Assembly: GCF_900156025.1 (NCBI RefSeq)
Contig: NZ_FTMO01000001.1
Coordinates: forward strand, 868,001-932,000
Length of the DNA stretch: 64,000 bases
Origin: Allobosea sp. TND4EK4
GTDB lineage: Bacteria; Pseudomonadota; Alphaproteobacteria; Rhizobiales; Beijerinckiaceae
Direction of reading: 5' to 3'
In this document: piece by piece, positions 35,674-52,632 of the stretch
Position numbering within the stretch: position 1 is the stretch's first letter
How the letters are laid out: every line of letters starts with the position of its first letter
The notes under the pieces: generated by a model
The model's input: only the letters and a program-made list of their open reading frames with translations
The model's database searches: none
What the model was told of the DNA's origin: nothing
Program-made: the position numbers and the translations under genes

Positions 35674-36423
35674 TCAGGCCGGGCCATACGGGCCGAAGCG
35701 GCCGACGAAACGGTGACGCGGCCCGGGATACAGCAATCGCACCGCCGTGACGGGCCGGTCCTGGTTCCAGGTGCGGCGCTCGACGAGAAGGCAGGGCTCG
35801 GTCTCGGCGATCTCCAGCAGCCCGGCCTCCTGGACCGAGGCGCCAACCGCGCTGATCGCATGCTCCGCCTGCGACCACAGGCTGTTTTGCAGCAGCCAAT
35901 CGCCCGGCGGCACCTCGGCGAAAAACTCGCCGGCAGCCGCGGCAACAGCTGCGAGGTGGATGATGCGCTCCTCCAGCACATGCGGGCGCCCGTCCCCGCG
36001 ATGCAGCACCAGGAGGTGGACGATCCTGTCGGACCGCTTCAGGCCGAAGCGCTCGGCCACCTCCGGCGAGACCTTCCCCACCTCGCGCGCCAGGATCTCA
36101 TAGGCGTAGTCCTGGCCGAGCCGCTCGATCTCCTCCGGGATCGAGAGGATGTCGAACATCGCGTGGCTGGCCGGCGGGCTGGCCACCACCGTCCCGGAGC
36201 GGCGACGGCGGGTGATCAGCCCCTCGCGCGCGAGCTGGACCAGCGCCCGGTGCACCGTCATCCGCGAGGTGCCAAGCTGCTCCATCAGCGCATGTTCGGG
36301 CGGCACCGGCGTCCCCGGCGGCCAGGCCCCACCGACGACGAGATCGCGGATCGCCCGCCGGATCTGGTCGTAGACCGGCCCGGCCCCGTCGAGTTTCAGC
36401 GTATCGGACTGCGTCTCTGCCAT
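35674..36423 (-). CDS. hutC: HutC-type GntR repressor of histidine utilisation
   Basis: The 249-residue regulator has an N-terminal GntR winged helix (PVYDQIRRAIRDLVVGG, then LGTSRMTVHRALVQLAREG) and a UTRA ligand domain of the HutC group, which typically senses urocanate. It follows hutF: the hutF stop TAG lies inside the ribosome site region (TAGGA) of hutC, so they are coupled. The hutF-hutC transcript starts at a promoter with two operators, so HutC is likely autoregulated. Confidence 0.88.
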   Translation of the reverse strand: MAETQSDTLKLDGAGPVYDQIRRAIRDLVVGGAWPPGTPVPPEHALMEQLGTSRMTVHRALVQLAREGLITRRRRSGTVVASPPASHAMFDILSIPEEIERLGQDYAYEILAREVGKVSPEVAERFGLKRSDRIVHLLVLHRGDGRPHVLEERIIHLAAVAAAAGEFFAEVPPGDWLLQNSLWSQAEHAISAVGASVQEAGLLEIAETEPCLLVERRTWNQDRPVTAVRLLYPGPRHRFVGRFGPYGPA

Positions 36424-37811: not shown

Positions 37812-37827
37812 AATTGCATAGGCAAAT
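37812..37827. promoter_or_regulatory. hut operator 1
   Basis: AATTGCATAGGCAAAT. Its reverse complement differs from operator 2 by one base in sixteen. It overlaps the leftward -10 (CTATTT, minus strand at 37829-37824), whose -35 TTGCAT is 17 bases upstream. It fits a HutC binding site repressing hutF-hutC. Confidence 0.65.
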
Positions 37828-37838
37828 AGCCTCTTGTC

Positions 37839-37854
37839 ATTTGCATATGCAATT
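37839..37854. promoter_or_regulatory. hut operator 2
   Basis: ATTTGCATATGCAATT, containing the perfect palindrome TTGCATATGCAA. It fills the spacer between a rightward -35 TTGTCA (37834-37839) and -10 TAGCAT (37858-37863) for hutI, and overlaps the leftward -35. The two sites are 27 bases apart in inverted orientation. Confidence 0.7.
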
Positions 37855-37897
37855 AGATAGCATATCCGAAACGCCAGCATAGCGGGGAGAATGCGAC

Positions 37898-39124
37898 GTG
37901 GCGAAAGCGCCGATGGGGACGACGCACTGCGACAGGCTGTGGACCCATGCCCGGCTGGCGACGATGGCGGGACCGGAGCCCTATGGCGCCATCGAGGACG
38001 GTGTGATCGCGGCCAGCGGCGGGCGGATCGTCTATGCCGGCCCGCGCAGCGAGGCCCCGGCCTTCGCGGCTGACGACACCGTCGATTGCGGCGGCCGCTG
38101 GATCACCCCCGGCCTGATCGATTGCCACACCCATCTCGTCTATGGCGGCGACCGGGCGCATGAGTTCGAAATGCGGCTTCAGGGCGCGAGCTACGAGGAC
38201 ATCGCGCGCGCGGGCGGCGGCATCCTCTCTTCGGTCAAGGCGACGCGGGCCGCAAGCGAGGACGAGCTGTTCGCGACCGCCGACCGGCGCCTTTCCGAGC
38301 TGATGCGCGAGGGCGTCACCACCGTCGAGATCAAGTCGGGCTACGGGCTCGACATCGAGAGCGAGGCGAAGGTGCTGCGGGTCGCGCGCCGGATCGGCCG
38401 CGAGCGGCCGGTCACGGTTCGGACCACCCTGCTGGGTGCCCATGCCGTCCCCCCCGAATACAAGGGCCGCTCCGGCGATTACGCCGCGCTGGTCGCCGGG
38501 CCGATGCTGGACGCGGTCGTTGCGGAAGGGCTCGCCGACGCGGTCGACGTGTTCTGCGAGGGCATCGCCTTCTCGCCGGAGGAGACAAGGCTCGTCTTCG
38601 CCGCGGCGAAGGCGAAAGGGCTCGCCATCAAGATCCACGCCGAGCAGCTCTCCAATCTTGGTGGTGCGAAGCTCGCGGCGCAGATGGGGGCGCTCTCGGC
38701 CGACCATCTCGAGCATCTCGACGAGGACGGCGTGATCGCGATGGCGCAGGCCGGCACCGTGGCGGTCGTGCTGCCCGGCGCCTTCTACTTCCTGCGGGAA
38801 ACGGTGAAGCCGCCGATCGAGCTGCTGCGCAAGCACGGCGTGCCGATCGCGCTCGCGACCGACGCCAATCCCGGCACCTCGCCTCTCACGTCGCCGCTGC
38901 TGACGATGAACATGGGCTGCACCTTGTTCCGGCTGACGCCGGAGGAGGCGCTGGCCGGCATGACCCGCCATGCCGCCCGTGCCCTCGGTCTTCAGGACGA
39001 GATCGGCACGCTCGAGACCGGCAAGGCCTGCGACCTCGCCATCTGGGAGATCGAGCGTCCGGCCGAACTTGCCTATCGCATCGGCTTCAACCCGCTTCAC
39101 GCCCGCATCCGGAACGGCCAATGA
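37898..39124 (+). CDS. hutI: Imidazolonepropionase HutI
   Basis: The 408-residue metal-dependent hydrolase opens imidazolone-5-propionate to formiminoglutamate. Metal and substrate motifs are [15 protein letters not shown] near residue 75, [11 protein letters not shown] near 147, KIHAEQLSN near 247 and [10 protein letters not shown] near 326. GTG 37898 has GGGGAGA seven bases upstream. The stop overlaps the hutH ATG (ATGA). First gene of the rightward hut transcript, under operator 2. Confidence 0.95.
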
Positions 39125-40653
39125 CCGCGATCTCGCTCAAGCCCGGCGCCACCGCCCTCACCGACTGGCGCGCCATCCTGGACGGCGCCTCAGCGACGCT
39201 CGGCGGCGATAGCGGCCATTCGATCGCCGCCGGCCAGTCAATCGTCGCCGAGATCGTCGCCGCCGGCACGGTGACCTATGGCGTCAACACCGGCTTCGGC
39301 AAGCTCGCCAGCGTGCGCATCGCCGATGCCGATCTGGCGCTGCTCCAGCGCAACCTCATCCTCTCCCACGCCGTCGGCACGGGCCCTGCCCTGCCGGACG
39401 GGATCGTGCGGCTCCTGCTGGCGATGAAGGCGGCGAGCCTGGCCCGCGGCGCCTCCGGCGTGCGGCCGGACGTGGTCGCGGCGCTGACCGCGGCGCTCGC
39501 AGCCGATGCGCTGCCGCTGATCCCCGCCAAGGGCTCGGTCGGCGCTTCCGGAGACCTCGCGCCTTTGGCCCATCTGACGGCTTCGCTGATGGGCTTCGGC
39601 GAGATCCGGATGAAGGGCGAGACGCTTCCGGCCGTCGAAGGGCTGAAGCGCGCGGGGCTCGCCCCGCTTGCGCTCGGCGCCAAGGAGGGGCTTGCGCTCA
39701 TCAACGGCACTCAGGTTTCGACGACGCTGGCACTGGCGGGGCTGATCGCGATCACGCGCGTCTTCGATGCAGCCCTGGTGGCGGGTGCGCTCTCGGTCGA
39801 TGCGCTGAAAGGCTCGGACACGCCGTTCGATCCACGCATCCAGGCGCTGCGCGGCCAGCCCGGCCAGATCAGGGTGGCGCGCACCCTGCTGGAGCTGATC
39901 GCCGGCAGCGCCATCCGCGAAAGCCACCGCCATGGCGACACCAAGGTTCAGGACCCCTATTCGCTGCGCTGCCAGCCGCAGGTGATGGGCGCGGTGCTGG
40001 ATCTCCTCGCCAATGTCGCCGCAACGCTGTCGATCGAGGCCAACGCGGTCACCGACAATCCGCTGGTGCTGGGGCCGGGCGAGATCGTCTCGGGCGGGAA
40101 CTTCCACGCCGAGCCGGTCGCCTTCGCCGCCGACATGCTGGCGATGGGCGTCTGCGAGATCGGCAACCTCTCGGAACGGCGCATGGCACTGCTGGTCGAC
40201 CCCGTGATGAGCGGCCTGCCGCCCTTCCTCGCCCGCGATGCCGGGCTGAACTCCGGCTTCATGATCGCGCAGGTGACGGCCGCCGCGCTCGCCTCCGAGA
40301 ACAAGCAGAAGGCCTATCCGGCCAGCGTCGACACCATCCCGACCTCAGCCAACCAGGAGGACCATGTCTCGATGGCGACGCATGGCGCCTTCCGCCTGCT
40401 CGACATGGCGCGCAACGCCGCCAGCATCATCGGCGTCGAGTTGATGGCGGCGGCGGAAGCGATCGAGCACCACCGCCCGCTGAAGACGAGCGCCCGGCTG
40501 GAGCCGGTGCTGGCGCTGCTGCGCCAGACGATCGCACCGCTGACCGAGGACCGGTATCTGGCGCCCGACCTCGCGGCGGCGACGGAGTTCGTGCTGTCGG
40601 GCGCGGTCGGCGAGGCGGCGGGGCTGGATTCGTTCGCGGAGTTCGGGGCGTGA
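39121..40653 (+). CDS. hutH: Histidine ammonia-lyase HutH
   Basis: The 510-residue lyase releases ammonia from histidine to give urocanate. The self-forming MIO cofactor comes from Ala142-Ser143-Gly144 in [20 protein letters not shown] near residue 57 and QEDHVSM near 415 are further family segments. It is coupled to hutI by an ATGA overlap. A palindromic repeat separates it from hutG. Confidence 0.96.
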
Positions 40654-40661
40654 GGCTCGCG

Positions 40662-40738
40662 CGTCATTCTCGGGCGGAGCGCAGCGCAGACCCGAGACTC
40701 TCGGGCAGGAGATGCTCGGGGCAAGCCCGAGCATGACG
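40662..40738. repeat. Intergenic palindromic repeat, hutH-hutG
   Basis: Ends CGTCAT (40662-40667) and ATGACG (40733-40738) are inverted copies. Internally CTCGGGC near the left end and GCCCGAG near the right end extend the stem. The element shares its ends with those at 43965-44059 and, more loosely, 43228-43368 and 55317-55432. Confidence 0.7.
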
Positions 40739-40750
40739 GAGCATGAACGC

Positions 40751-41557
40751 ATGACCTCGATCGTCACGGTCACCCGGGGCCCCTCCCCGCTGATCCTCTC
40801 CATGCCCCATCCCGGCACCGGCCTGCCGGCCGAGGTCGCCGCCCAACTCAACGAGCGTGGGCGTCTCGTCGAGGACACCGACTGGCATATACGCGAGGTT
40901 TACGCCTTCGCGGAGCGCTTCCAGCCGACGATCGTCGAGGCGAAGCTGTCGCGCTATGTCATCGACCTGAACCGCGATCCGTCCGGCGTCTCGCTCTATC
41001 CCGGACAGGCGACGACCGAGCTGGTGCCGACGACGACCTTCGACGGCGCGCCGATCTGGGATGTCCCGCCCGACGCGGCCGAGATCGAGCGGCGCCGCAT
41101 CGCCTATTTCCAACCCTATCACGACGCGCTCGCGGCCGAGATCGAGCGGGTCAAGGCCGCCCATGGCTATGCTGTGCTGTGGGACTGCCACTCGATCAAG
41201 TCGGTCATCCCCCGGCTCTTTCCCGGCACGCTGCCGACGCTCAATCTCGGCACCAATTCGAGCGCGAGCTGCGCGCCAGCCGTCGAGGCCGCTGCCGTGG
41301 CGGCGATGGGCGGGCAGCCGCTCAGCCATGTCGCGAACGGGCGGTTCAAGGGTGGCTGGATCACCCGCCATTACGGCCGCCCGGCCGAGCATGTGCATGC
41401 GATCCAGATGGAGAAGGCGCTCAGCGCCTATCTTTCCGCCGAGACCGCACCCTGGACCTTCGATGCGTCCCGGGCCGCCAGCCTGCAATCCGCCCTCTCA
41501 GCCATCATCGAAGCCGCTCTGAATGCGGCCGCCACGCTCGAACGGAGCCGTTCATGA
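40751..41557 (+). CDS. hutG: N-formylglutamate deformylase HutG
   Basis: The 268-residue hydrolase converts N-formylglutamate to glutamate and formate, the last step of the five-step route. Family phrases are [13 protein letters not shown] near residue 17, [10 protein letters not shown] near 42, LWDCHSIKS near 142 and GGWITRHYG near 200. ATG 40751 has GGAG nine bases upstream. An in-frame ATG at 40712 lies inside the palindromic repeat and is unlikely. Coupled to hutU by ATGA. Confidence 0.93.
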
Positions 41558-43221
41558 CCCGCATCGACAACAGCCGCGTCATCCGCTCACCGCGTGGCAC
41601 GGAGCTCTCCGCCAAGAGCTGGCTCACCGAAGCGCCGCTGCGCATGCTGATGAACAATCTCGACCCCGACGTCGCCGAAAAGCCCGGCGAGCTCGTCGTC
41701 TATGGCGGCATCGGCCGGGCCGCCCGCAGCTGGGAGGATTTCGACCGGATCTGCGCGTCGCTGCGTTCGCTGGAGGCCGACGAGACGCTGCTGGTCCAGT
41801 CCGGCAAGCCGGTCGGCATCTTCCGGACGCACCCGGATGCGCCGCGGGTGCTGATCGCGAACTCCAACCTCGTCCCGGCCTATGCGAACTGGGAGCATTT
41901 CCACCATCTCGATAAGCTCGGGCTGATGATGTACGGCCAGATGACGGCCGGTTCCTGGATCTATATCGGCACGCAGGGCATCGTTCAGGGCACCTACGAG
42001 ACCTTCGTCGAGGTCGGCCGGCAGCATTATGGCGGCTCGCTCAAGGGCAAGTGGATCCTGACCGGGGGGCTCGGCGGCATGGGCGGGGCCCAGCCGCTGG
42101 CCGCGACCATGGCCGGCGCCTCGATGATCGCCGTCGAGTGCAAGCCCTCCTCGATCGAGTTCCGCCTGCGCACGCGCTATCTCGACGAGAAGGCCGACAG
42201 CATCGACGAGGCCCTGAAGATCGTCGAGGCGGCGCATGCGAAGGGCAAGGCGGTCTCGGTCGGCGTGCTCGGCAATGCCGCCGAGATCTTCCCCGACATG
42301 GTCCGCCGCGGCATCCGCCCCGATGTCGTCACCGACCAGACCTCGGCGCATGATCCGCTCAACGGCTATCTGCCGGCCGGCTGGACGCTGGAGGAGTGGG
42401 AGGAGCGCAAGGAGCGCGATCCCGCCGGGACGATCGAAGCCGCCAAGCGCTCCATGGCCGAGCATGTCAAGGCGATGCTCGACTTCCAGCGCATGGGCGT
42501 GCCGACGCTCGACTACGGCAACAACATCCGCCAGATGGCCAAGGACATGGGCGTCGCGAACGCCTTCGACTTCCCCGGCTTCGTGCCCGCCTATATCCGC
42601 CCGCTGTTCTGCCGCGGCATCGGCCCCTTCCGCTGGGCGGCCCTCTCGGGCGATCCGGAGGACATCTACCGGACCGACGCCAAGGTGAAGGAGCTGATGC
42701 CGAACGACGCGCATCTGCACAACTGGCTCGACATGGCGCGCGAGCGCATCCAGTTCCAGGGCCTCCCCGCCCGCATCTGCTGGGTGGGGCTGGGCGACCG
42801 GCACCGCCTGGGCCTCGCCTTCAACGAGATGGTGGCCAAGGGCGAGCTGAAGGCGCCGGTCGTGATCGGCCGCGACCATCTCGATTCCGGCTCCGTCGCC
42901 TCGCCCAACCGCGAGACGGAAGCGATGAAGGACGGCTCGGACGCGGTCTCCGACTGGCCGCTGCTGAACGCGCTGCTCAACACCGCGGGCGGCGCGACCT
43001 GGGTCTCGCTGCATCATGGCGGCGGCGTCGGCATGGGCTATTCGCAGCATTCGGGCGTGGTCATCGTCGCCGACGGCACGCCGGCAGCGGCCAAACGGCT
43101 GGAGCGCGTGCTCTGGAACGACCCGGCCACCGGCGTGATGCGCCATGCCGACGCCGGCTACGAGATCGCGCAGGACTGCGCGCGCGAGAAGGGGCTGAAG
43201 CTGCCGGGGATTTTGGGGTAA
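41554..43221 (+). CDS. hutU: Urocanate hydratase HutU
   Basis: The 555-residue NAD-containing hydratase converts urocanate to imidazolone propionate. Conserved segments include [11 protein letters not shown] near residue 50, [14 protein letters not shown] near 170, the catalytic-region GYLPAGW, and [10 protein letters not shown] containing the NAD-site Cys near 349. Length is typical. Its gene follows hutG with a four-base overlap, and another palindromic repeat follows it before hutD. Confidence 0.96.
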
Positions 43222-43227
43222 GCCCGC

Positions 43228-43368
43228 TGTCATTCCGGGGCGGCCGAAGGGCGAACCCGGAACCCACGACCGGGAGAGCCCGGCTCGGTTCATCAGGCCT
43301 CCAGTCTTGATGCCCCGGCCCAGCCGTGGGTTCCGGGTTCTCCGCTGGCGCGGAGCCCCGGAATGACA
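43228..43368. repeat. Long nested palindrome, hutU-hutD
   Basis: A perfect 14-base inverted pair (TGTCATTCCGGGGC at 43228-43241, complement at 43355-43368) encloses a second perfect 16-base pair (starting GAACCCGGAACCCACG near 43252, complement near 43326-43341). The 141-base unit can fold into a long hairpin and nearly fills the hutU-hutD gap. Confidence 0.75.
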
Positions 43369-43393
43369 ATTGGTCTCGATGCGAAGGAAGCCC

Positions 43394-43957
43394 ATGCACA
43401 TCATCCGCGCCGCCGATTGCAAAACCATGCCGTGGAAGAACGGCGGGGGGACCACGACCGAGATCGTTGTTTCTCCAAAGGGAGCTTCCCTGAACGCTTT
43501 CGACTGGCGCATCTCGATGGCGCATGTCGGGGCTGACGGACCGTTCTCCTCTTTTCCCGGAATCGACCGAACGCTGTCCGTGCTGAGCGGCAACGGCATC
43601 CGGCTCGCCTTCGGCGACGGCGAGACGGTGAAGCTCGATCGAGCCTCCCGCCCCTTCTTCTTCGCGGCCGACCGCGCCGTCGACGGGGTTCTGGTCGACG
43701 GGCCGATCGACGACCTCAATGTGATGAGCCGTCGCGGCGCATGGACGCACCGCATCGAGCGGCTGAGGGGCGGCGGCTCGTTCAGCGCGGAGGAGGGCGT
43801 GCTGGTGCTGGTCGCCCGCGAGGGCGATTGGCAGGTCGACGGGGCAGCGCTTCCCGCTGGTGACAGCGCGGTGCTCGATGCGCCGGGGCGCGTCGAGCTG
43901 AGCGTCAGCGGCAGCGCAGCAGAGCTCTATGCGGTGTGGCTGACGAGCGAGCCCTGA
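43394..43957 (+). CDS. hutD: HutD family protein
   Basis: The 187-residue cupin-like protein starts with the HutD hallmark MPWKNGGGTTTEI (residues 12-24), followed by FDWRISMAHVGADGPFSSFPGIDRTL, split here by position (35-60). HutD proteins accompany hut genes and are thought to modulate the pathway or bind an intermediate; the reaction is not settled. ATG 43394 has AAGGAAG four to five bases upstream. Last gene of the rightward hut set. Confidence 0.88.
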   Translation: MHIIRAADCKTMPWKNGGGTTTEIVVSPKGASLNAFDWRISMAHVGADGPFSSFPGIDRTLSVLSGNGIRLAFGDGETVKLDRASRPFFFAADRAVDGVLVDGPIDDLNVMSRRGAWTHRIERLRGGGSFSAEEGVLVLVAREGDWQVDGAALPAGDSAVLDAPGRVELSVSGSAAELYAVWLTSEP

Positions 43958-43964
43958 CTGAGGA

Positions 43965-44059
43965 CGTCATTCTCGGGCGGAGCGAAACTCCGACCCGGGA
44001 ATCGCACCGCCGGAAGCCGCTGGTTTGCAGGATGCGCGGGGTCAAGCCCGAGCATGACG
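43965..44059. repeat. Intergenic palindromic repeat after hutD
   Basis: Left end CGTCATTCTCGGGC (43965-43978) pairs with GCCCGAGCATGACG (44046-44059) with one mismatch. It lies between the convergent ends of hutD and the citrate synthase gene and is the closest relative of the 40662-40738 element. Confidence 0.7.
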
Positions 44060-44072
44060 AGGCGGGCGGGCT

Positions 44073-45152
44073 TCAAGCTGCCTGTTGCGGCCTCGGGCCC
44101 ACATAGACCGATTGCGGGCGGATCAGCTTGCCGCCGGCGATCTGCTCATGGGCATGGGCGAGCCACCCCGTGGTGCGGCCGAGCGCGAAGACGCAGGTGA
44201 AGGCTTCGGGCGGGAAACCCAACGCTTCGAGCAGAAGCGCCGTGTAGAACTCGACATTGGTTTCGAGCGTGCGGCCCGGCTTGCGCTCGCGCAGGATGGC
44301 GAGCGCCGCCTGCTCGACCGCCTCGGCGAGGGCGAGGCGGCCCGTATCGGCGCCGAGCTTGCGGATCGCTGCTTTCAGCGCGTCGGCTCGCGGATCGCGC
44401 ACGCGATAGATGCGGTGGCCGAAGCCCATCAGCCGGTCGCCCCGGTCGAGCGCCTCTTCGAGCCAGGGCCGCGCATTCTCCGGTGCCCCGATCGCGTCGA
44501 GCATCTCGATGACCGGACCCGGCGCGCCGCCATGCAGCGGCCCCTTCAGCGCGCTGATCCCGGCCAGTACCGCCGAGGCGAGGCCGGCGCGGGTCGAGGC
44601 GACGACGCGGGCGGCGAAGGTCGAGGCGTTGAGGCCGTGATCGGCCACCGTGACGAGATAGGTATCGAGCGCCCTGGCCTGCTCCTGCGTCGGCGCGTTC
44701 CCGCCCAGCATGCGCAGCGTATCCGCCGCCTGCGTCAGGGACGGATCGGGAGCTATCGGGGACAGCCCCTTCGCGACGCGCAGCACGGCCGGCGTGAAGA
44801 CGGCCGGAGCCGCCAGCAGCTTCAGCAGAGTGCCCGCATCCTCGCCGTCCGGGATCAGCGCGGTCAGCGCGCGCACCGCCTCGACTGGCCCGAGTTCGGC
44901 AGGCAGCCGGGCGCCCGACACCACCGCCTCGTACAGCGAGACACGCGCGGCGCCCAGCGCGGTCGGCAGCTCCTTCGGGCCCGGCAGCTCCGGCACGAAA
45001 CCGGCCAGCATCAACGCGGCCATCTCCTCGAAACCGGTGTGGCCGGCCAACTCGTCCAGACTGCGGCCGCAGACGATCAGGCGCCCGGCTTGGCCGTCGA
45101 CCTCGGACAGGACGGTGTGGGCTGCGACGACGTTTTCGAGGCCATCGGACAT
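44073..45152 (-). CDS. Citrate synthase family protein with Asp-to-Glu active site
   Basis: The 359-residue protein has the citrate synthase fold. Catalytic His207 (KGPLHGGA) and His246 (GFGHRIYRVRDPRA) are present, but the catalytic Asp is Glu301 (TNVEFYTALLLEAL). This fits the Rhizobiales citrate/methylcitrate synthase-like group rather than the housekeeping enzyme. The acceptor could be oxaloacetate with acetyl- or propionyl-CoA, or another pair. AGGAGA precedes ATG 45152. It diverges from the HTH-citrate synthase gene across a short AT-rich gap. Confidence 0.8.
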   Translation of the reverse strand: MSDGLENVVAAHTVLSEVDGQAGRLIVCGRSLDELAGHTGFEEMAALMLAGFVPELPGPKELPTALGAARVSLYEAVVSGARLPAELGPVEAVRALTALIPDGEDAGTLLKLLAAPAVFTPAVLRVAKGLSPIAPDPSLTQAADTLRMLGGNAPTQEQARALDTYLVTVADHGLNASTFAARVVASTRAGLASAVLAGISALKGPLHGGAPGPVIEMLDAIGAPENARPWLEEALDRGDRLMGFGHRIYRVRDPRADALKAAIRKLGADTGRLALAEAVEQAALAILRERKPGRTLETNVEFYTALLLEALGFPPEAFTCVFALGRTTGWLAHAHEQIAGGKLIRPQSVYVGPRPQQAA

Positions 45153-45205
45153 GGCTTGGTCTCCTCAACTGAACCGGCTTGAGGATCGTCATCGCATCCG
45201 CTAAA

Positions 45206-45231
45206 ATCAATCTTGAACAATATAATCAATA
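45206..45231. promoter_or_regulatory. AT-rich divergent control region of the citrate synthase pair
   Basis: An AT-rich patch in otherwise GC-rich DNA carries AATCAAT twice (45206-45212, 45224-45230) and TATAAT at 45221-45226, eighteen bases before the rightward ATG. That start would give a very short leader. A leftward promoter may use TTGATT in the complement. The repeats are candidate sites for the HTH-containing product. Confidence 0.35.
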
Positions 45232-45238
45232 TATTCCG

Positions 45239-46378
45239 ATGAGCGACTGGCTGACGGCATCGCAGGTGATGGAGCGGCTCGGATTGAAGCCGCAGACGCT
45301 CTACGCCTATGTCAGCCGCGGGCTGATCGAGGCGCGGGCGGATGGCGCAGACTCGCGGCGCCGGCTCTACCGCGCGGCCGATGTCGAGCGGCTGTTGCAT
45401 CGCAAGGCGCGCGGCAGAAGGCCCGCGGCGATCGCCGAGGATGCGATCTCCTGGGGCGAGCCGGTCCTGGCCTCGGCCATCACCACGATCGCGCGCGGGC
45501 GGCTCTGGTATCGCGGAGAGGATGCCTCGCGGCTCGCGCAGACATCCAAGCTGGAGGACGTCGCCCGCCTGCTCTGGGATTGCGGAACGCAGCGCTTCCC
45601 ACCACTGTTCACGCTGGTGCCGGACGGGCCGCCGCTCAGGCGCATCTTCGCGGTTCTGGGGGAGCGGGCTGCGAGCGACCCGGCCATGGCGGGGCGGACG
45701 AAGAAGGCGCTCTATCTCGAAGCGGCCTCCGTGCTGGATTGCCTGGTCGATGCCATTGCCGGGCGGCCCGGCCAAGGGCCCATCCACACCCGTCTGGCGG
45801 CCGCCTGGGGCTGCGACGATGCAGGAAGCGCGCTGGTCCGCCGGGCGCTGGTCCTGCTCGCGGATCACGAGCTCAACGCCTCCACCTTCGCGGTGCGGGT
45901 CACGGCCTCGACGCGTGCCTCGCTCGCAGCCTGCGTCACGGCCGGACTGGCCGCGCTGTCGGGTCCGCTCCATGGCGGCATGGCGCGGCGCGTGCTGGCC
46001 CTGATGCGGGAAGCCGAGCGCGAGGGGCTGGAGGCCGCGCTGGCCGAGCGCCTCGCGGCCGGCACACCCCTGCCTGGCTTTGGCCATCCGCTCTATCCGG
46101 ATGGCGACCCGCGCGCGGCCGCCCTGCTCTCGGCCTTCGTGCCGCCGGCCGCCTATGCAGGCATGCGCGACACGGTGGCCGCACTCACGGGGGAGGAACC
46201 CAATATCGACTTCGCGCTGACGGCGATGGCCAGGCATCTCGCGCTTCCCGACGACGTCCCCTACCTGCTCTTCGCCGCGGCGCGCTGCACAGGCTGGATC
46301 GCCCATGCGCTGGAGCAGAACGAGACAGGGCGGCTGATCCGCCCTCGGGCGCGCTATACGGGACCGGAGCCCGGCTGA
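45239..46378 (+). CDS. Citrate synthase-like enzyme fused to a MerR-type DNA-binding domain
   Basis: The 379-residue protein starts with a MerR/excisionase-like winged helix (residues 4-55: LTASQVMERLGLKPQTLYAY, then RRRLYRAADVERLL). A basic linker (HRKARGRRP) leads to a citrate synthase domain with the full triad: His245 (SGPLHGGM), His283 (GFGHPLYP) and Asp324 (PNIDF). The combination suggests a metabolite-sensing regulator, or an enzyme tethered to DNA. It is divergent from its paralogue at 44073-45152. Its 3' end overlaps the convergent cfa gene by 25 bases. Confidence 0.82.
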   Translation: MSDWLTASQVMERLGLKPQTLYAYVSRGLIEARADGADSRRRLYRAADVERLLHRKARGRRPAAIAEDAISWGEPVLASAITTIARGRLWYRGEDASRLAQTSKLEDVARLLWDCGTQRFPPLFTLVPDGPPLRRIFAVLGERAASDPAMAGRTKKALYLEAASVLDCLVDAIAGRPGQGPIHTRLAAAWGCDDAGSALVRRALVLLADHELNASTFAVRVTASTRASLAACVTAGLAALSGPLHGGMARRVLALMREAEREGLEAALAERLAAGTPLPGFGHPLYPDGDPRAAALLSAFVPPAAYAGMRDTVAALTGEEPNIDFALTAMARHLALPDDVPYLLFAAARCTGWIAHALEQNETGRLIRPRARYTGPEPG

Positions 46379-47595
46379 GACGCGCTCTCCCGCCCGAAAG
46401 CCGTCTCGCGCTGCTCGATATAGCCGCGCGTGATCGGCAGTCCGTCGAGTTTCCTGGCGAGCTGGAACTGGAAGACGACCAGATCGTCATGGCGGAAGCT
46501 CGCCTCACAGGCAGCAAGGTAGAATTCCCACATCCGGGCGAAGCGCTCGTCATACATCGCCACCGCATCGTCGCGGCGGTCGAGGAAGTTCTCGCGCCAG
46601 ATTTTCAGCGTTTCGGCATAATGCAGGCGCAGCACCTCGACATCGGTGACGATCAGGCCCTCCTTCTCGATCGCCGCCGCCATCTCGGACATGGCCGGGA
46701 TGTAGCCGCCCGGGAAGATGTACTTCGCGATGAAGGGGTTGGTGGCGCCAGGCGGGGTCGCGCGGCCGATCGTGTGGACCAGTGCCACGCCGTCCTCCGT
46801 CAGCAGCTCGCGGATCTTGCGGAAATACTCGCGATAGTAGCCGACGCCGACATGCTCGAACATGCCGACCGAGACGATGCGGTCGAAGCGCTCCGTCAGG
46901 TGCCGGTAGTCCTGCAGGCGAAACTCCACCGGCAGGCCGGACTCCCGGCCGCGCTGCTGCGCGATGGCAAGCTGCTCCTGCGAGAGCGTGATGCCCGTGA
47001 CGGAGGCGCCCGCCTCGCCGGCGATGGAGAGCGCCATGCCGCCCCAGCCGCAGCCTATATCGAGCACGCGCTGGCCGGGTTGAAGATCGAGCTTGCCCAT
47101 GATGTGGCGCTTCTTGGCGGCCTGCGCCTGCGCCAGCGTCATCTCCGGGCTGGCGAAATAGGCGCAGGAATACTGCATGTCGGGATCGAGAAAGAGCCGG
47201 AAGAAGTCGCTCTTCAGGTCGTAGTGATGCGCGACGTTGCGCCTCGCCAATGCAGGCGTGTTGTGCTGATGAAAGCGCCGGATCGCGGTGCGCAGGCCTT
47301 CGAGCGCCTTGCCCCAGCCTTGCGGCCGGGCCTTGTGGACGGCCGTCACCAGCGCATCGAGCAGGTCGTAGAGCGAGCCCTGCTCGACCACGACGCGCCC
47401 GTCCATCACCGCCTCGCCGAGCGCCAGTTCCGGATTGAGAGCGAGCTTGAGCTCGGTCGGCGTGTCGACGATGCGCATCCGCAGGCGCGGCACACTTCCC
47501 TGCCCGATCGACTGCGACGTGCCGTCCGGAAACACCACGTCGATGCGCGGCTCGATCGCGAGCCGCGACAGCATTCTTGCAACCAGTGAACGCAT
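46354..47595 (-). CDS. cfa: Cyclopropane-fatty-acyl-phospholipid synthase
   Basis: The 413-residue SAM-dependent enzyme adds a methylene bridge to unsaturated phospholipid acyl chains at the inner membrane. The SAM site is VLDIGCGWGGMALSIA near residue 183, and HHYDLKSDFFRLFLD near 124 and FIFPGGYIP-like KYIFPGGYIPAM near 292 are typical. The N-terminal 100 residues form the lipid-binding domain. ATG 47595 follows GGGTGGGG; the open frame extends further upstream without support. Its 3' end overlaps the convergent gene by 25 bases. Confidence 0.92.
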   Translation of the reverse strand: MRSLVARMLSRLAIEPRIDVVFPDGTSQSIGQGSVPRLRMRIVDTPTELKLALNPELALGEAVMDGRVVVEQGSLYDLLDALVTAVHKARPQGWGKALEGLRTAIRRFHQHNTPALARRNVAHHYDLKSDFFRLFLDPDMQYSCAYFASPEMTLAQAQAAKKRHIMGKLDLQPGQRVLDIGCGWGGMALSIAGEAGASVTGITLSQEQLAIAQQRGRESGLPVEFRLQDYRHLTERFDRIVSVGMFEHVGVGYYREYFRKIRELLTEDGVALVHTIGRATPPGATNPFIAKYIFPGGYIPAMSEMAAAIEKEGLIVTDVEVLRLHYAETLKIWRENFLDRRDDAVAMYDERFARMWEFYLAACEASFRHDDLVVFQFQLARKLDGLPITRGYIEQRETAFGRESASQPGSGPV

Positions 47596-47768
47596 TGGCC
47601 CCACCCTTCGGCAGTGCCCCCTTGGCCTGCCAAAGATGGCGAGCAAAAGCCCGGCCGTAACGGCGGTTTCGCGCAATCCCGCCCTTCGCCTGCGGCATGA
47701 CGGCGCAGACCACGTGGGCAATGCCGACCAATTCCGCATGACCCGCTCAACCTGCGGTCGATACGACC

Positions 47769-48548
<780 letters not shown>

Positions 48549-48579
48549 AGGCGCGCCCCGTTCATAGCCCTTGACCCGT

Positions 48580-49353
48580 TCATAGCCTTGCCCACGGGAA
48601 CAGGCGCTGGTTGACCGCCTTGAAGAGGAAGTCGGAGATCAGGCCGATCAGCCCGATGACGATGATGCCGAAGATGATCTGGCCGGTGTTCAGCAGCGCC
48701 TGGCTGTCGGTGATCATGTGGCCGATGCCGGAGGAGGAGCCGATCAGCTCCGCGACGATGACATAGGTCCAGGCCCAGCCGAGCACGAGGCGGAAGATCT
48801 CGGCGATCTGCGGGGCGGCGTTCGGCAGCAGCACGCGGCGCACCACCGCTCGGTCGCTGGCGCCGAGCGTGTAGGCTGCGTCGACGAGGTCGCGCCGGAC
48901 TCCGCCGACCGCCACCGCGATCATCAGGATGAGCTGGAAGACCGAACCGATGAAGATGACGAGCAGCTTCTGCGTCTCGCCGATGCCGGCCCAGAGGATC
49001 AGCAGCGGAATGAAGGCCGAGGCGGGCAGATAGCGCGCGAAGGAGACGAAGGGCTCAAGAAACGCCTCGACCGGCTTGTAGGCGCCCATCGCTATGCCGA
49101 GCGGCAGCGCCACCAGCGCCGCGAGGACGAAGCCGCCGAACACGCGCCAGATCGTCATCAGGATATCGAAGCCGAAGCCGTATTGCGTCATCAGCTTCCA
49201 GCCTTCGCCGACCATGGTCAGCGGGTCGGCCAGGAAGAGGCGCTGGACATAGCCGCCGAAGGTCGCGACGGCCCAGAGCGCGACGAACAATGCGAAGAAG
49301 GCGAGGCCGTAGCCGATGCGGGCCGGGGCAGAGACGGGTTGCAGAGGTCTCAT
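48580..49353 (-). CDS. NitT/TauT-type ABC transporter permease
   Basis: The 257-residue permease has about six helices and the coupling loop DAAYTLGASDRAVVRRVLLP near residues 160-179 that contacts the ATPase. The start at 49353 overlaps the stop of the glycosylase gene (TGATG), so it is translated from the same message. In-frame starts further upstream would run into that gene. It belongs with the ATPase and the solute-binding protein of the operon. Confidence 0.9.
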   Translation of the reverse strand: MRPLQPVSAPARIGYGLAFFALFVALWAVATFGGYVQRLFLADPLTMVGEGWKLMTQYGFGFDILMTIWRVFGGFVLAALVALPLGIAMGAYKPVEAFLEPFVSFARYLPASAFIPLLILWAGIGETQKLLVIFIGSVFQLILMIAVAVGGVRRDLVDAAYTLGASDRAVVRRVLLPNAAPQIAEIFRLVLGWAWTYVIVAELIGSSSGIGHMITDSQALLNTGQIIFGIIVIGLIGLISDFLFKAVNQRLFPWARL

Positions 49354-49874
49354 CAAGGGCATCCACCGACGGCCGCAGCCATCTCTTTCCATGGTTCGGG
49401 CGACCAGAAGCCGGCGGCAGCGCCCGAGGTCGAGGGCAGGACGAAGACCGCGGCCTCGGCCACCGGACGGGATTGCGGGCCATAGTCAAGCGGCCCGAAG
49501 CCCAGGATCGCCTGCGCCGCACGCTTGCCGTTGAAGGCGAGGACACGGGGCCGGTGCGCGGCGATGCGCGCGTGCAGCCCGGCCGCATCGACATTTGCGA
49601 GGCGGAGCGCCGAGTCGGGGCCGGAGCTGTGCTTGGCGACATCGGTGAGGCCGATGCCGTAGCGCAGCACCTCGCGAAACTCCGCCGGCGCGAGCCGCCT
49701 CGGAGTCAGCCCGATCGCGTGCAGCACGGACCAGAACTTGTTGCCCGGCCCGGCATAGTACGCGCTGCGACGGGCGGAGGCGGCCCCGGCCTGCGTGCCG
49801 CAGAAGACGACCGACAGGCCGGGCGCGAGCACGTCGGGAAGGACGGCTGCGTCCGGCAGCGGCGCCGGCCTCAC
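49353..49874 (-). CDS. Mug/TDG-type mismatch DNA glycosylase with altered motif
   Basis: The 173-residue protein matches the uracil/thymine DNA glycosylase fold: VVFCGTQAGAASARRSAYYA at residues 22-41, then GPGNKFW, GLTDVAKHSSG and VLAFNGKRAAQ. The canonical GINPG catalytic motif is GTQAG here (residues 26-30), so the Asn is a Gln; the relatives GTAAG are known in alphaproteobacteria by memory. LPSTSGAAA replaces the usual NPSGLS. Its GTG start overlaps the SBP stop (GTGA) and its stop overlaps the permease start. It is lodged inside an ABC transporter operon. Confidence 0.78.
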   Translation of the reverse strand: MRPAPLPDAAVLPDVLAPGLSVVFCGTQAGAASARRSAYYAGPGNKFWSVLHAIGLTPRRLAPAEFREVLRYGIGLTDVAKHSSGPDSALRLANVDAAGLHARIAAHRPRVLAFNGKRAAQAILGFGPLDYGPQSRPVAEAAVFVLPSTSGAAAGFWSPEPWKEMAAAVGGCP

Positions 49875-50830
49875 TTGCCCGCGACGAACTTCGTGTCGAC
49901 CAGCGTCGCGAAATCGGGCTTCGCCTTGATCAGCCCCATCTCCAGAAGGAGATCCGCGGCCTTGGCGTTGAAGGCCTGCCAGTCGCCGGCGAAGAAGGCC
50001 TTGTTCCCCTCCGCATCCGACCAGCGCAGGAAGGCGGCCGACTTGCCGAACTCCTCGCCGCTCTGCTTCACATCGGCGCCCATGATGCCATAGGCCTTGG
50101 CCTGGTCGGCCTTGATCATGGCGATCGCCTCGAAATAGCTCTTGGTCAGGGCTGCGGCCGCCTTGTCGTCGGCGAGGAAGGCCGGGGTGCAGCCGAAGGT
50201 GTCCATGACCATCGGATAGTCGAGCGTGGTGGCAATGATCTTGCCGGCGTCCGGCTTGTCGCGCACCGCGGAAAGATAGGGCTCATAGGTCATGGCCGCG
50301 TCGTTCTGGCCGGCGATGAAGGCCTGCGCCGCGGGGCCGGGCTCCATGTTGACGACCTTGACGTCCTTCACGGACAGGCCGTTCTCCTTGAGGAACCAGG
50401 CCAGCGCGAAATAGGGCGAGGTGCCCGGCGCGGAGGCCGCGACCGTCTTGCCCTTCAGGTCCTTGATCGAGGCGATGTCCTTGCGCACGGCCATGCCGTC
50501 GGCGCCGTAGCTCTTGTCGAGCTGGAAGATCTGCCTGGTCTTGATCCCTGCCGCGTCCCAGACCAGCCAGGTCTCGACGGTGGTGGCCGCGCACTGGATG
50601 TCGCCCGAGGCGATGGCGAGGTGCCGGTCCTTCTGCGGGATCTTCTTGATCGTCACGTCGAGGCCGTTCTTGGCGAAGATGCCCGCTTCCTTGGCGAGCG
50701 TCAGCGGCGCGAAGCCGGTCCAGCCCGAAATGCCGATCGCGACCTTCGTCTGCGCCTGTGCAGCGCCCGCGGCGAAGAGCGCCGCCAGACCGAAAGCCGC
50801 CGCCGCGCCGGCGCGCTTGAACTCCATCAT
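49871..50830 (-). CDS. NitT/TauT-type ABC transporter substrate-binding protein
   Basis: The 319-residue periplasmic protein has a signal peptide cleaved after AAQAQ (residue 26). It follows the SsuA/NMT1-like fold: GISGWTGFAPLTLAKEAGIF near residue 34, KGKTVAASAPGTSPYFALAW near 128, and AFIAGQNDAAMTYEPYL near 171. Start MMEFKRAG at 50830 has AAAGG seven bases upstream. It heads an operon with a glycosylase, a permease and an ATPase. The promoter has a hut-type operator, so the ligand may be histidine-related. Confidence 0.88.
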   Translation of the reverse strand: MMEFKRAGAAAAFGLAALFAAGAAQAQTKVAIGISGWTGFAPLTLAKEAGIFAKNGLDVTIKKIPQKDRHLAIASGDIQCAATTVETWLVWDAAGIKTRQIFQLDKSYGADGMAVRKDIASIKDLKGKTVAASAPGTSPYFALAWFLKENGLSVKDVKVVNMEPGPAAQAFIAGQNDAAMTYEPYLSAVRDKPDAGKIIATTLDYPMVMDTFGCTPAFLADDKAAAALTKSYFEAIAMIKADQAKAYGIMGADVKQSGEEFGKSAAFLRWSDAEGNKAFFAGDWQAFNAKAADLLLEMGLIKAKPDFATLVDTKFVAGK

Positions 50831-50920
50831 GGTCGAACCTTTCCCCTGCTTGGCGTCATCCGCCTGACCGAGAGGCACTTCAGCCTCGTTGCCCGGACGA
50901 TGCAACCTTCGTTCCAAGGC

Positions 50921-50948
50921 AGGTTAAATGCATATGCAAAACGGTCAA
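50921..50948 (-). promoter_or_regulatory. Promoter with a hut-type operator for the ABC operon
   Basis: On the minus strand TTGACC (50948-50943) and TAACCT (50926-50921) are 16 bases apart. The spacer contains TTGCATATGCA (50939-50929), the same 11-base core found in hut operator 2. This is the same layout as the hutI promoter: operator between -35 and -10. It lies about 95 bases before the SBP start. Confidence 0.55.
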
Positions 50949-51075
50949 GCGGGCCGATCACGGGAACGAGGGGCAGCCATGACATTCTCTCGTTTGACAG
51001 ATTGCCCGCAATTTCCTCCCTTCAGGAACCCGAGGCGCAGCGCGTCTCTTCTCCAGCGTCATCGAGGTTCCCGGA

Positions 51076-52632
51076 ATGAACGGCGCCGACCGCCTTTGCG
51101 ACACCCTGCTGATCAACGGTGTCGATGTCTGCTTCGCCAATCCCGGCACGTCCGAGATGCACTTCGTCGCCGCGCTCGACCGCAAGCCACAGATGCGCTG
51201 CGTGCTCGGCCTGTTCGAGGGCGTGGTGACCGGCGCGGCCGACGGTTATGCCCGCATGGCCGACAAGCCGGCTGCGACGCTGCTGCATTGCGGGCCGGGC
51301 ATGGCGAACGCGCTGGCCAACATGCACAACGCCCGCCGTGCCTGGACGCCGATGATCAACGTCGTCGGCGACCATGCGACCTATCACCTGCAGCACGACG
51401 CGCCGCTGACCAGCGACATCGAAAGCCTGGCACGGCCGATGTCGCATTTCGTGCGCCGGATCGATTCGGCGGAGGATGTCGGCCCGGCGATCGAGGAGGC
51501 CTATGTCGCCTCGCTGACCTTGCCCGGCGTCACCACCGTGATCCTGCCGGCCGACTGCGCCTGGAACAGCATCGAGCCGGCCACGCTCAAGCCCGCGACG
51601 CTGCCGGCGCTGAAGAGCGTCGATGGAGCGACGCTGCGCGAGGTCGCGGCCGGCCTGCGCAAGCATGGCAAGCGCGCGGCGATCATGCTGACCGGGTTGG
51701 CGCTGCGCGAGAAGCCGATGGAGATGGCGGCGCGTGTCTGCGCTGCGACCGGGGCGCAGATCTTCGCCCAGATGTCGAACGGGCGCATCCAGCGCGGCGT
51801 CGGGCGCGTCGCGATCCCGAAGGTGTATTATCCGATCGACAAGGCGCTCGAGCAGCTCAAGGACGTCGATTATCTCGTGCTCGTCGGGGCGCAGGTTCCG
51901 GTCGGGTTCTTTGCCTATCCCGGCAAGCCGGGGCGGCTCGTGCATGAGGGCTGCGAGGTCACGGCGCTGGCCAGGCCCGGCGACGACCTGCCGGCCGCGA
52001 TCGACGCGCTGGCCGACGAGATCGGCGCAAAGAAGACGGCGCCGGTTTATATCGCTCCGCCCCGCGGCGAGATGCCCGGGCTCCCCACCGGTCCGCTCGA
52101 CGCCGACAAGGCCTGCGCCATCGTCTCGACCCTGCTGCCCGAGAATTGCATCGTCGCCGACGAGTCCGTGTCGTCGGGGCGCATGTTCTATTTCGACTGC
52201 CACAGCGCGCCGCAGCACGACTATATCCAGCTCACCGGCGGGGCGATCGGCGAGGGCATTCCGCTCGCCATCGGCGCGGCGGTCGCCTGCCCCGACCGCA
52301 AGGTCGTCGCAATGCAGGCCGACGGCTCCGGCATGTACACGGTGCAGGGGCTCTGGACGCAGGCGCGCGAGAAGCTCGACATCGTCACCGTCATCTTCGC
52401 CAACCGGACCTACCAGATCCTGCATGGCGAGATGCGCGCGGTCGGCGTCAACGATTTCGGCCGCAACGCCACACTGATGCTCAACCTCGACGAGCCGGCG
52501 CTGGACTGGGTGCAGATGGCGCGCGGCATGGGCGTCGAGGCAGCGCGGGCCACGACGGCGGAGGAGTTCGCCGACCTGTTCAGGGCGGCCCTCGCCCGGA
52601 AGGGGCCGTTCCTGATCGAGGCGGTGATCTGA
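51076..52632 (+). CDS. Acetolactate synthase large subunit-like ThDP enzyme
   Basis: The 518-residue thiamin diphosphate enzyme has the activating Glu in LGLFEGVVTGAADGYARM near residue 48, and the ThDP/metal motif ADGSGMYTVQGLWTQAREK near 415 followed by VIFANR. It belongs to the IlvX/IlvG-like group that lacks a regulatory subunit partner, and is more like a decarboxylase or carboligase than a biosynthetic acetolactate synthase. No ilvH gene is nearby. It is followed by acetoacetate decarboxylase on the same strand after 163 bases. Confidence 0.78.
   Translation: MNGADRLCDTLLINGVDVCFANPGTSEMHFVAALDRKPQMRCVLGLFEGVVTGAADGYARMADKPAATLLHCGPGMANALANMHNARRAWTPMINVVGDHATYHLQHDAPLTSDIESLARPMSHFVRRIDSAEDVGPAIEEAYVASLTLPGVTTVILPADCAWNSIEPATLKPATLPALKSVDGATLREVAAGLRKHGKRAAIMLTGLALREKPMEMAARVCAATGAQIFAQMSNGRIQRGVGRVAIPKVYYPIDKALEQLKDVDYLVLVGAQVPVGFFAYPGKPGRLVHEGCEVTALARPGDDLPAAIDALADEIGAKKTAPVYIAPPRGEMPGLPTGPLDADKACAIVSTLLPENCIVADESVSSGRMFYFDCHSAPQHDYIQLTGGAIGEGIPLAIGAAVACPDRKVVAMQADGSGMYTVQGLWTQAREKLDIVTVIFANRTYQILHGEMRAVGVNDFGRNATLMLNLDEPALDWVQMARGMGVEAARATTAEEFADLFRAALARKGPFLIEAVI

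What the first reader, a model, noticed from the sequence alone, without database searches (positions are those of the whole stretch)
37812..50948. HutC-type operators link the hut locus to a NitT/TauT-like ABC operon
The hutI/hutF divergent promoter has two 16-bp sites that differ by one base when compared in inverted orientation (37812-37827, 37839-37854). The core TTGCATATGCA recurs once more, at 50929-50939, again placed between -35 and -10, in front of the substrate-binding protein/glycosylase/permease/ATPase operon 10 kb away. The known step is that HutC represses hut genes; the inference is that this transporter is part of the regulon and imports histidine, urocanate or a derivative. 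The family is usually assigned to sulfonates, nitrate or pyrimidines, so the ligand would be new.
Basis: partly seen in the sequence, partly recalled or inferred. Interest (0 to 1): 0.72.

Follow-up and report, generated by a model that had tools for sequence, protein, structure and literature searches.

The report
Histidine-pathway repressor controls ABC importer
A soil bacterium's repressor of histidine breakdown very probably also controls a nearby nutrient importer of a family usually linked to sulfonates, so this importer most likely brings in histidine or its breakdown product urocanate.

Summary
In this Bosea-like genome the 11-mer TTGCATATGCA occurs only at the hutF/hutI promoter and before the ABC operon. 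The ABC site lies between a conserved -35 and -10 in 42 of 42 genus genomes that have HutC and the binding protein; it is absent in 5 of 5 with the binding protein but no HutC. Outside Bosea the SBP-permease-ATPase set lies near hut genes in 24 of 48 loci, and a HutC-type operator precedes the SBP in 24 of 53 (0.14 expected). Among 24 loci without hut genes nearby, HutC is present in 7 of 7 genomes with the operator and 3 of 17 without. Operator dialect follows the HutC recognition helix: Asn/Ser with TGT (62 of 62), His with TGC (7 of 7), with a pattern fixed after seeing hut sites. HutC control is very likely; histidine or urocanate import is the best inference, but binding, expression and transport are untested. 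It is probably the 'HisXYZ' histidine transporter already predicted in HutC regulons (PMC5343134), so the ligand is probably not a new idea. A sigma54-like element downstream remains unresolved.

The parts
35674..36423 (-). hutC, repressor (GntR + UTRA); recognition helix SRMTVHRAL
   Evidence: TIGR02018 267.6 bits, cut-off 220; PF00392 and PF07702; helix
36432..37793 (-). hutF, formimidoylglutamate deiminase, upstream of hutC on the same strand
   Evidence: TIGR02022 609.5 bits, cut-off 413
37812..37827 (.). HutC operator 1 (imperfect palindrome, core TGCATAGGCA), hutF side
37834..37863 (+). hutI promoter: TTGTCA (37834-37839) - 18 bp - TAGCAT (37858-37863), operator in the spacer
   Evidence: conserved columns in 42 loci
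37839..37854 (.). HutC operator 2 (core TGCATATGCA 37842-37851), hutI side
   Evidence: at least one exact copy in 42 of 42 HutC-positive genus genomes examined (the 43rd, G033, was not examined), none within 2 mismatches in 6 of 6 HutC-negative ones
37898..39124 (+). hutI, imidazolonepropionase
   Evidence: TIGR01224 487.6 bits
39121..40653 (+). hutH, histidine ammonia-lyase
   Evidence: TIGR01225 633.7 bits
40712..41557 (+). hutG, N-formylglutamate deformylase (start approximate)
   Evidence: TIGR02017 351.7 bits
41578..43221 (+). hutU, urocanate hydratase (start approximate)
   Evidence: TIGR01228 968 bits
43370..43957 (+). HutD/Ves-like gene
   Evidence: PRK11396 66 bits, below its cut-off
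47769..48548 (-). ABC ATPase
   Evidence: PF00005 108.9 bits; TauB/SaoA-like, below the equivalog cut-offs
48580..49392 (-). ABC permease
   Evidence: PF00528 98.8 bits
49353..49874 (-). uracil-DNA-glycosylase-superfamily (Mug-like) gene inside the operon; probably not needed for transport
   Evidence: PF03167 57.2 bits; matched in 23 of 32 Bosea-group loci and 1 of 53 others
49871..50830 (-). substrate-binding protein, NMT1/SsuA/TauA fold, apparent signal peptide
   Evidence: PF09084 66.7 bits; model pLDDT 90, best PDB match TauA 6ssy, TM 0.79/0.84
50901..50916 (-). conserved block TGGAACGAAGGTTGCA, sigma54 (-24/-12)-like; role unresolved
50921..50926 (-). -10 TAACCT of the ABC promoter
   Evidence: TAnnnT invariant in 42 genomes
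50929..50939 (-). HutC operator of the ABC operon (core TGCATATGCA 50929-50938)
   Evidence: 42 of 42 HutC-positive genus genomes with the SBP, 36 exact and 6 with one mismatch
50943..50948 (-). -35 TTGACC of the ABC promoter
   Evidence: TTGAC invariant in 42 genomes

Best explanation
The ABC operon is a detached part of the HutC regulon. HutC dimers sit on TGCATATGCA between the -35 and -10 of the SBP promoter, as at the hut promoter, and block RNA polymerase; urocanate made from histidine releases HutC and switches on uptake and breakdown together. The SBP-permease-ATPase imports a hut substrate, most likely L-histidine, less likely urocanate or a derivative. Shown here by sequence comparison: operator, promoter placement, conservation, co-occurrence with HutC, operator dialect matching HutC's recognition helix. 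Inferred: HutC binding, urocanate as inducer (reported for Pseudomonas), the ligand.
For: Operator in 42 of 42 HutC-positive genus genomes with the SBP, 0 of 5 HutC-negative ones and 0 of 1 in G067. 84 of 86 exact 14-mers in 30 genus genomes lie at hut or this SBP. In G081 (HutC 54% identical, about 27 kb from the SBP) two hut sites and the SBP site carry the same variant, TGCATAGGCA or its complement. Hut genes within the fetched flanks in 24 of 48 non-Bosea loci, e.g. Microvirga hutI-H-G-U-D then SBP, Bradyrhizobium hutF-hutC-SBP, and in 4 of 5 plasmid loci opened (not 40). HutC-type operator before the SBP in 24 of 53 non-Bosea loci, 0.14 expected. Of 24 loci with no hut gene nearby, HutC is over the family cut-off in 7 of 7 genomes with an operator and 3 of 17 without, Fisher p 0.0003; 0.0005 after dropping a truncated locus and three genomes already in the genus test. 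hutU over cut-off in 23 of those 24 genomes against 125 of 249 in the order. Helix residue vs operator: Asn-TGT 58, Ser-TGT 4, His-TGC 7, none discordant.
Against: No binding, expression or transport data. The genus split (42 against 5) and the His-TGC pairing may each be one evolutionary event. The operator pattern was set after seeing hut sites; the first, looser palindrome scan gave two off-rule letters (Asn with C in L221, which also has TGTATATACA; Asn with A in L293). A near-site TGTCTATACT goes with a His-type HutC in G175/L287, a possible exception. The SBP is also strongly conserved in genomes without HutC and away from hut (77-81% identity), so the transporter can work outside HutC control. 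Two genomes with HutC (L174, L182) have no operator before the SBP, and 11 of 28 hut-linked non-Bosea loci have none either. Tistrella (L200) has neither hut genes nor an operator nearby. Close solved members of the fold bind sulfonates, taurine, nitrate or pyrimidines.
Confidence: 0.86

Rival explanations
1. HutC controls the operon, but the imported ligand is not a hut intermediate; it is another nitrogen or sulfur compound whose uptake is useful when histidine is present.
For: Homologues of known function bind sulfonates, taurine, nitrate or thiamine precursors; the transporter is kept in genomes without HutC; best NCBIfam matches of the SBP are sulfonate, putative urea and taurine models, all below cut-off.
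Against: The set lies among hut genes in several genera and classes; hutU is over cut-off in 23 of 24 genomes where the set is not beside hut, against 125 of 249 in the order.
Confidence: 0.09
2. The 50929 palindrome is bound by a different regulator (another GntR paralogue) or by nothing, and its likeness to the hut operator is coincidence.
For: Single-genome statistics are modest: 0.46 matches expected in the genome, and 10 against 5.3 with 2 mismatches in the window. Other GntR-type matches exist (14 matches to HutC in G000).
Against: Conservation in 42 genomes, shared variant in G081, genus-matching dialects and co-occurrence with HutC elsewhere.
Confidence: 0.04
3. The operon is mainly nitrogen-controlled through a sigma54 promoter, with HutC as a second layer. 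This can hold together with the best explanation.
For: TGGAACGNNNNTTGCA fits the recalled sigma54 consensus at 11 of 12 defined bases and its columns are mostly over 90% conserved in 42 genomes; L145 keeps both boxes while the 4-bp spacer differs; G046, L152 and G043 keep similar boxes without the palindrome. Pseudomonas PhutU has a sigma54 site overlapped by the HutC footprint (PMC12977541, passages).
Against: Such matches are not rare: 33 in the genome (up to 1 mismatch) against 35 for the reversed control. The element is missing in G026 and G034 and mis-spaced in G041, while TTGACC-N16-TAAnCT is kept there. The 4-bp spacer is itself conserved in Bosea, which sigma54 does not require (recalled).
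Confidence: 0.2

Closest known systems
HutC regulon of Proteobacteria, 'HisXYZ' ABC transporter (Leyn et al. 2016, PMC5343134, passages)
   Same: An ABC system predicted to import histidine, in HutC regulons of Comamonadaceae, Ralstonia and Rhizobiales; the present family is next to hutC in a Comamonadaceae plasmid and in many Rhizobiales
   Different: The protein family of HisXYZ was not visible to me, so identity is likely but unproven. In Bosea the operon is 9-19 kb from hutI with its own operator
Pseudomonas HutC operator Phut, TGTA-N2-TACA (PMC12977541, passages)
   Same: 10-bp palindrome overlapping hut promoters, urocanate-responsive repressor
   Different: Bosea operator is TGCA-TA-TGCA, a symmetric change at positions 3 and 8, paired with His instead of Asn in the HutC helix
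TauA / SsuA substrate-binding proteins (NitT/TauT family)
   Same: Fold (TauA 6ssy TM 0.79/0.84) and Pfam NMT1
   Different: About 20% identity; below the TauA and SsuA model cut-offs; lies with hut genes
HutXYZ/HutXWV histidine ABC transporter of Pseudomonas and some Rhizobiales (named in PMC5343134; its family is recalled)
   Same: ABC histidine uptake in HutC regulons
   Different: Recalled as ProU/glycine-betaine type; the SBP here matches NMT1 models and no betaine-type SBP model was listed

Membership tests
HutC (TIGR02018) | score over the curated cut-off; GntR + UTRA domains | tested here: met
   267.6 bits against 220; PF00392, PF07702
HutC (TIGR02018) | binds the hut operator, released by urocanate | not testable with these tools
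   needs shift or footprint assay
HutC regulon member | HutC-type operator in the promoter, conserved in relatives | tested here: met
   42 of 42 HutC-positive genus genomes with the SBP; 24 of 53 non-Bosea loci
HutC regulon member | operator tracks the presence of HutC | tested here: met
   0 of 5 HutC-negative genus genomes and 0 of 1 in G067; elsewhere HutC in 7 of 7 with operator against 3 of 17 without
HutC regulon member | expression changes with hutC deletion or urocanate | not testable with these tools
   no expression data
NitT/TauT (SsuA/TauA/NMT1) ABC importers | NMT1-type SBP with matching permease and ATPase | tested here: met
   PF09084 66.7 bits, PF00528, PF00005 over cut-offs; fold
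Taurine/sulfonate/urea transporter SBP models of NCBIfam | score over the curated cut-off | tested here: not met
   SsuA_fam 102.6 of 163.5; taurine 42.3 of 304; ABC_peri_uca 77.9 of 334
HisXYZ of PMC5343134 | same protein family as the published HisXYZ | not tested
   figure and supplement not available; taxon list partly agrees, Ralstonia not examined
Sigma54-dependent promoter | GG-N10-GC boxes with conserved spacing and RpoN dependence | tested here: inconclusive
   boxes conserved in the genus but absent or mis-spaced in part of the sister group, and common by chance; RpoN dependence not testable

The most novel reading that the evidence does not exclude
A NitT/TauT-type importer is a dedicated histidine/urocanate transporter found in alpha-, beta- and gammaproteobacteria and on Rhodococcus plasmids, and HutC operators come in two dialects set by one recognition-helix residue: Asn/Ser reads TGT...ACA, His reads TGC...GCA, so operators at hut and at the detached transporter changed together.
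Probability: 0.6. Interest if true: 0.6.

Novelty: new member of a known kind. Interest (0 to 1): 0.48.

Why it matters
It gives a physiological role to a transporter family that annotation calls sulfonate- or nitrate-binding, with a ligand that is easy to test. It also offers a one-residue/one-base hypothesis for GntR/HutC operator specificity that can be tested in vitro.

Tried and rejected
Sigma54 as the main promoter: considered after the first conserved block was seen, then weakened by the reversed-pattern control and the sister group. The reading that the -35/-10 placement was wrong: held for a while (note), rejected after the invariant TTGAC and TAnnnT columns were found. Neighbours of hut-less loci as hints to another ligand: 10 proteins from 9 loci gave no common theme, 3 of them without any Pfam match. 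The TGTCAAAC block upstream of the SBP promoter: found in 33 of 42 within 230 bp, not pursued. A looser operator definition (any palindrome TGxy..CA) for the helix test: replaced by the narrower one because it missed imperfect sites; it gave Asn-T 24, His-C 6, Ser-T 2, Asn-C 1, Asn-A 1. Experimental histidine phenotypes for this family in Acidovorax (recalled from GapMind/RB-TnSeq): not found in the library, so not used as evidence. Paper searches listed no paper that, by title and abstract start, names this family in a hut system; the library holds open-licence papers only and I read passages of five, so this is no proof of absence from print. Shuffles behind the expected numbers keep base composition only. 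No experiment was possible.
Full report
WHAT IS THERE. The window lies in a 4.72 Mb genome of 60 contigs; the closest named loci are mostly Bosea (SBP about 81-94% identical). hutF and hutC are on the minus strand, in the order hutF then hutC, divergent from hutI-hutH-hutG-hutU and a hutD/Ves-like gene. About 13 kb from the hutI start, also on the minus strand, lies an operon of substrate-binding protein (SBP), Mug-like glycosylase, permease and ATPase. The stated sites are exact. TTGCATATGCA occurs nowhere else in the assembly; 0.46 matches are expected.

CONSERVATION IN THE GENUS. Of 49 genus genomes, 43 have a HutC orthologue (69-100% identity; in G042 the match holds one stop codon) and six have only remote matches: G026, G031, G034, G041, G043, G046. 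The SBP orthologue is present in 42 of the 43 (not G016; in two pieces in G047) and in 5 of the 6 (in G031 only a broken piece). The palindrome lies 93-117 bp before the SBP start in 42 of 42 (36 exact, 6 with one mismatch); it is absent (2-4 mismatches at best) in 5 of 5 HutC-negative genomes and in G067 of another family. At hutI at least one exact TGCATATGCA is present in 42 of 42 HutC-positive genomes examined (the 43rd, G033, with a split hutI, was not examined) and none within 2 mismatches in 6 of 6 HutC-negative ones. The 14-mer TTGCATATGCAWTT was searched in 30 of the 49 genus genomes: 60 of 86 matches are at hut, 24 at the SBP, 2 elsewhere. SBP and hutI are 9-19 kb apart in the 27 of these genomes where both lie on one contig.

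PROMOTER. Anchored on the palindrome, TTGAC (positions -10 to -6) and T12, A13 and T17 are invariant in 42 genomes, that is TTGAC(G)-N16-TAnnnT with the operator in the spacer. Four of five sister-group sequences without HutC (G026, G034, G041, G046) and G043 with a similar arrangement keep TTGACC about 16 bp before a TAA-type -10, with a G+C-rich spacer and no palindrome (read by eye). The hutI promoter has TTGccA-N18-TAGCAT with the palindrome in its spacer. A further conserved block, TGGAACGAAGGTTGCA, begins 22 bp after the first base of the palindrome core. It resembles a sigma54 promoter, but such matches are as common as in a reversed control and part of the sister group lacks it or has another spacing, so its role is open.

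BEYOND THE GENUS. A scan of named genomes with an SBP alignment confirmed 550 relatives and kept the 80 best loci. I classed 32 as the Bosea group by name and identity and 48 as others. All 32 of the Bosea group have the operator before the SBP; many are the same genomes as in the genus test, so they add little. Among the others, 24 of 48 have at least one of hutC/F/I/H/G/U in the fetched flanks of up to 10 kb, some cut short by contig ends. Typical orders are hutI-hutH-hutG-hutU-hutD-SBP-permease-ATPase in Microvirga and hutF-hutC-SBP-permease-ATPase in Bradyrhizobium. In plasmids, 64 records match at 60-80% identity; of five opened, four have hut genes beside the transporter (Comamonadaceae, Pseudorhizobium, Rhodococcus with hutH only, Klebsiella) and one, Tistrella, does not.

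OPERATORS BEYOND THE GENUS. Scanning up to 320 bp before the SBP and its first 60 bp for TGx[AC]TA[GT]x'CA found a site in 24 of 53 non-Bosea loci (48 plus 5 plasmid loci): 17 of 28 hut-linked and 7 of 25 not linked; base-composition shuffles expect 0.14 in all. The seven unlinked ones are L145, L169, L175, L186, L187, L192 and L193. I then searched the genomes of 24 hut-less loci (the plasmid locus L200 left out) for HutC: over the family cut-off in 7 of 7 with an operator and 3 of 17 without. One of the three (L181) has only 19 bp of upstream sequence, and three of the 17 (L147, L151, L163) are genomes already counted as HutC-negative in the genus test. Fisher p is 0.0003 for all, 0.00015 without L181, 0.0005 without all four. 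All 24 have a hutU match, 23 over the cut-off, against 125 of 249 in an even sample of the order; a few genomes are in both sets by their coordinates, and the 24 include some from outside the order. The six Bradyrhizobium and two Burkholderiales loci have no operator of their own; there the SBP lies closely downstream of hutC on the same strand.

OPERATOR DIALECT. In 126 loci with hutF (G061 is represented twice) I looked for the operator class TGx[AC]TA[GT]x'CA before hutF and read the residue of the HutC recognition helix SRMTVx. The pattern was set after seeing hut sites; a looser palindrome scan gave Asn-T 24, His-C 6, Ser-T 2 and two off-rule letters, Asn-C (L221, which also has TGTATATACA) and Asn-A (L293). 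With the pattern, where both could be read, Asn went with TGT 58 times, Ser with TGT 4 times and His with TGC 7 times, none discordant. In 26 loci HutC was readable but no operator was found (21 Asn, 5 His); in 31 loci no HutC was aligned in the fetched stretch (9 with an operator, 22 without); shuffles expect 0.24 sites in all. One His-type HutC (G175/L287) has a near-site of the TGT type with one mismatch, a possible exception. The His-TGC cases are six Bosea-clade loci and G081, perhaps a single origin. In G081 (HutC 54% identical, about 27 kb from the SBP) hut and SBP operators share the same variant. In the seven unlinked loci with an operator the residue again fits: Asn with TGT in 5 of 5 readable, His with TGC in G081; G298/L186 could not be read.

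LIGAND. The SBP model (mean pLDDT 90.0) is nearest to TauA (6ssy, TM 0.79/0.84, about 20% identity), SsuA and Thi5-type proteins. No NCBIfam cut-off is met by the SBP. Identity to the window's SBP is 72-90% over 37 aligned relatives from several genera, so the ligand is probably the same throughout. Linkage makes a hut substrate the best guess; histidine is favoured over urocanate because hutH is present in 25 of 28 hut-linked non-Bosea loci, but that is inference. [quoted passage not shown]

KNOWN OR NEW. PMC5343134 (passages) predicted HisXYZ, an ABC histidine transporter, in HutC regulons of Comamonadaceae, Ralstonia and Rhizobiales. The present system very probably is that transporter, but its family is not given in the passages I saw. 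A hisXYZ of Gram-positive bacteria also exists (PMC9413887, passages); its relation was not tested. PMC12977541 (passages) gives the Pseudomonas operator TGTA-N2-TACA and the urocanate response. New here, as far as the listings can tell, are the Bosea dialect TGCATATGCA, the detached operon with its own operator in the -35/-10 spacer, and the residue/operator pairing.

LIMITS. Everything rests on sequence comparison. The genus-level split and the His/TGC pairing are not many independent events; the multi-genus operator and co-occurrence tests are the stronger evidence.

Noticed in passing
49353-49874 (-): A uracil-DNA-glycosylase-superfamily (Mug-like) gene sits between SBP and permease; a match is present in 23 of 32 Bosea-group loci and in 1 of 53 others (L196, Beijerinckiaceae). 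Why it is in a transporter operon is unclear.
   Followed up: partly
50901-50916 (-): A conserved sigma54-like block lies just downstream of the -10 of the ABC promoter.
   Followed up: partly
about 50978-50999: A second conserved block (TGTCAAACGAGAGAATGTCAT on the minus strand) about 60 bp upstream of the operator, found in 33 of 42 genus genomes (84-97 bp in four of them), perhaps part of the divergent 51076 gene's promoter.
   Followed up: no
L110-L115 (G043, G041, G046, G031, G034, G026): A sister group keeps hut genes and, in 5 of 6, the ABC set, but has no HutC orthologue and neither operator; how hut is regulated there is unknown.
   Followed up: partly
L202 (Klebsiella IncR plasmid): A hut cluster (hutG, I, C, F, hutD-like, H, U) with this ABC set lies on an IncR plasmid; SBP matches were found on 31 Klebsiella, 14 Enterobacter and 11 Escherichia plasmid records, of which one was opened.
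   Followed up: no
L166/G312 and L176/G317: A second, divergent urocanate-hydratase-like gene (693 bits) in G312, and only such a lower-scoring one (695 bits) in G317; one search shows that thiourocanate hydratases are a related family.
   Followed up: no
51076-52632 (+): A thiamine-diphosphate enzyme (acetolactate-synthase-like, PRK07586) divergent from the ABC operon, matched beside the SBP in the Bosea-group loci.
   Followed up: no
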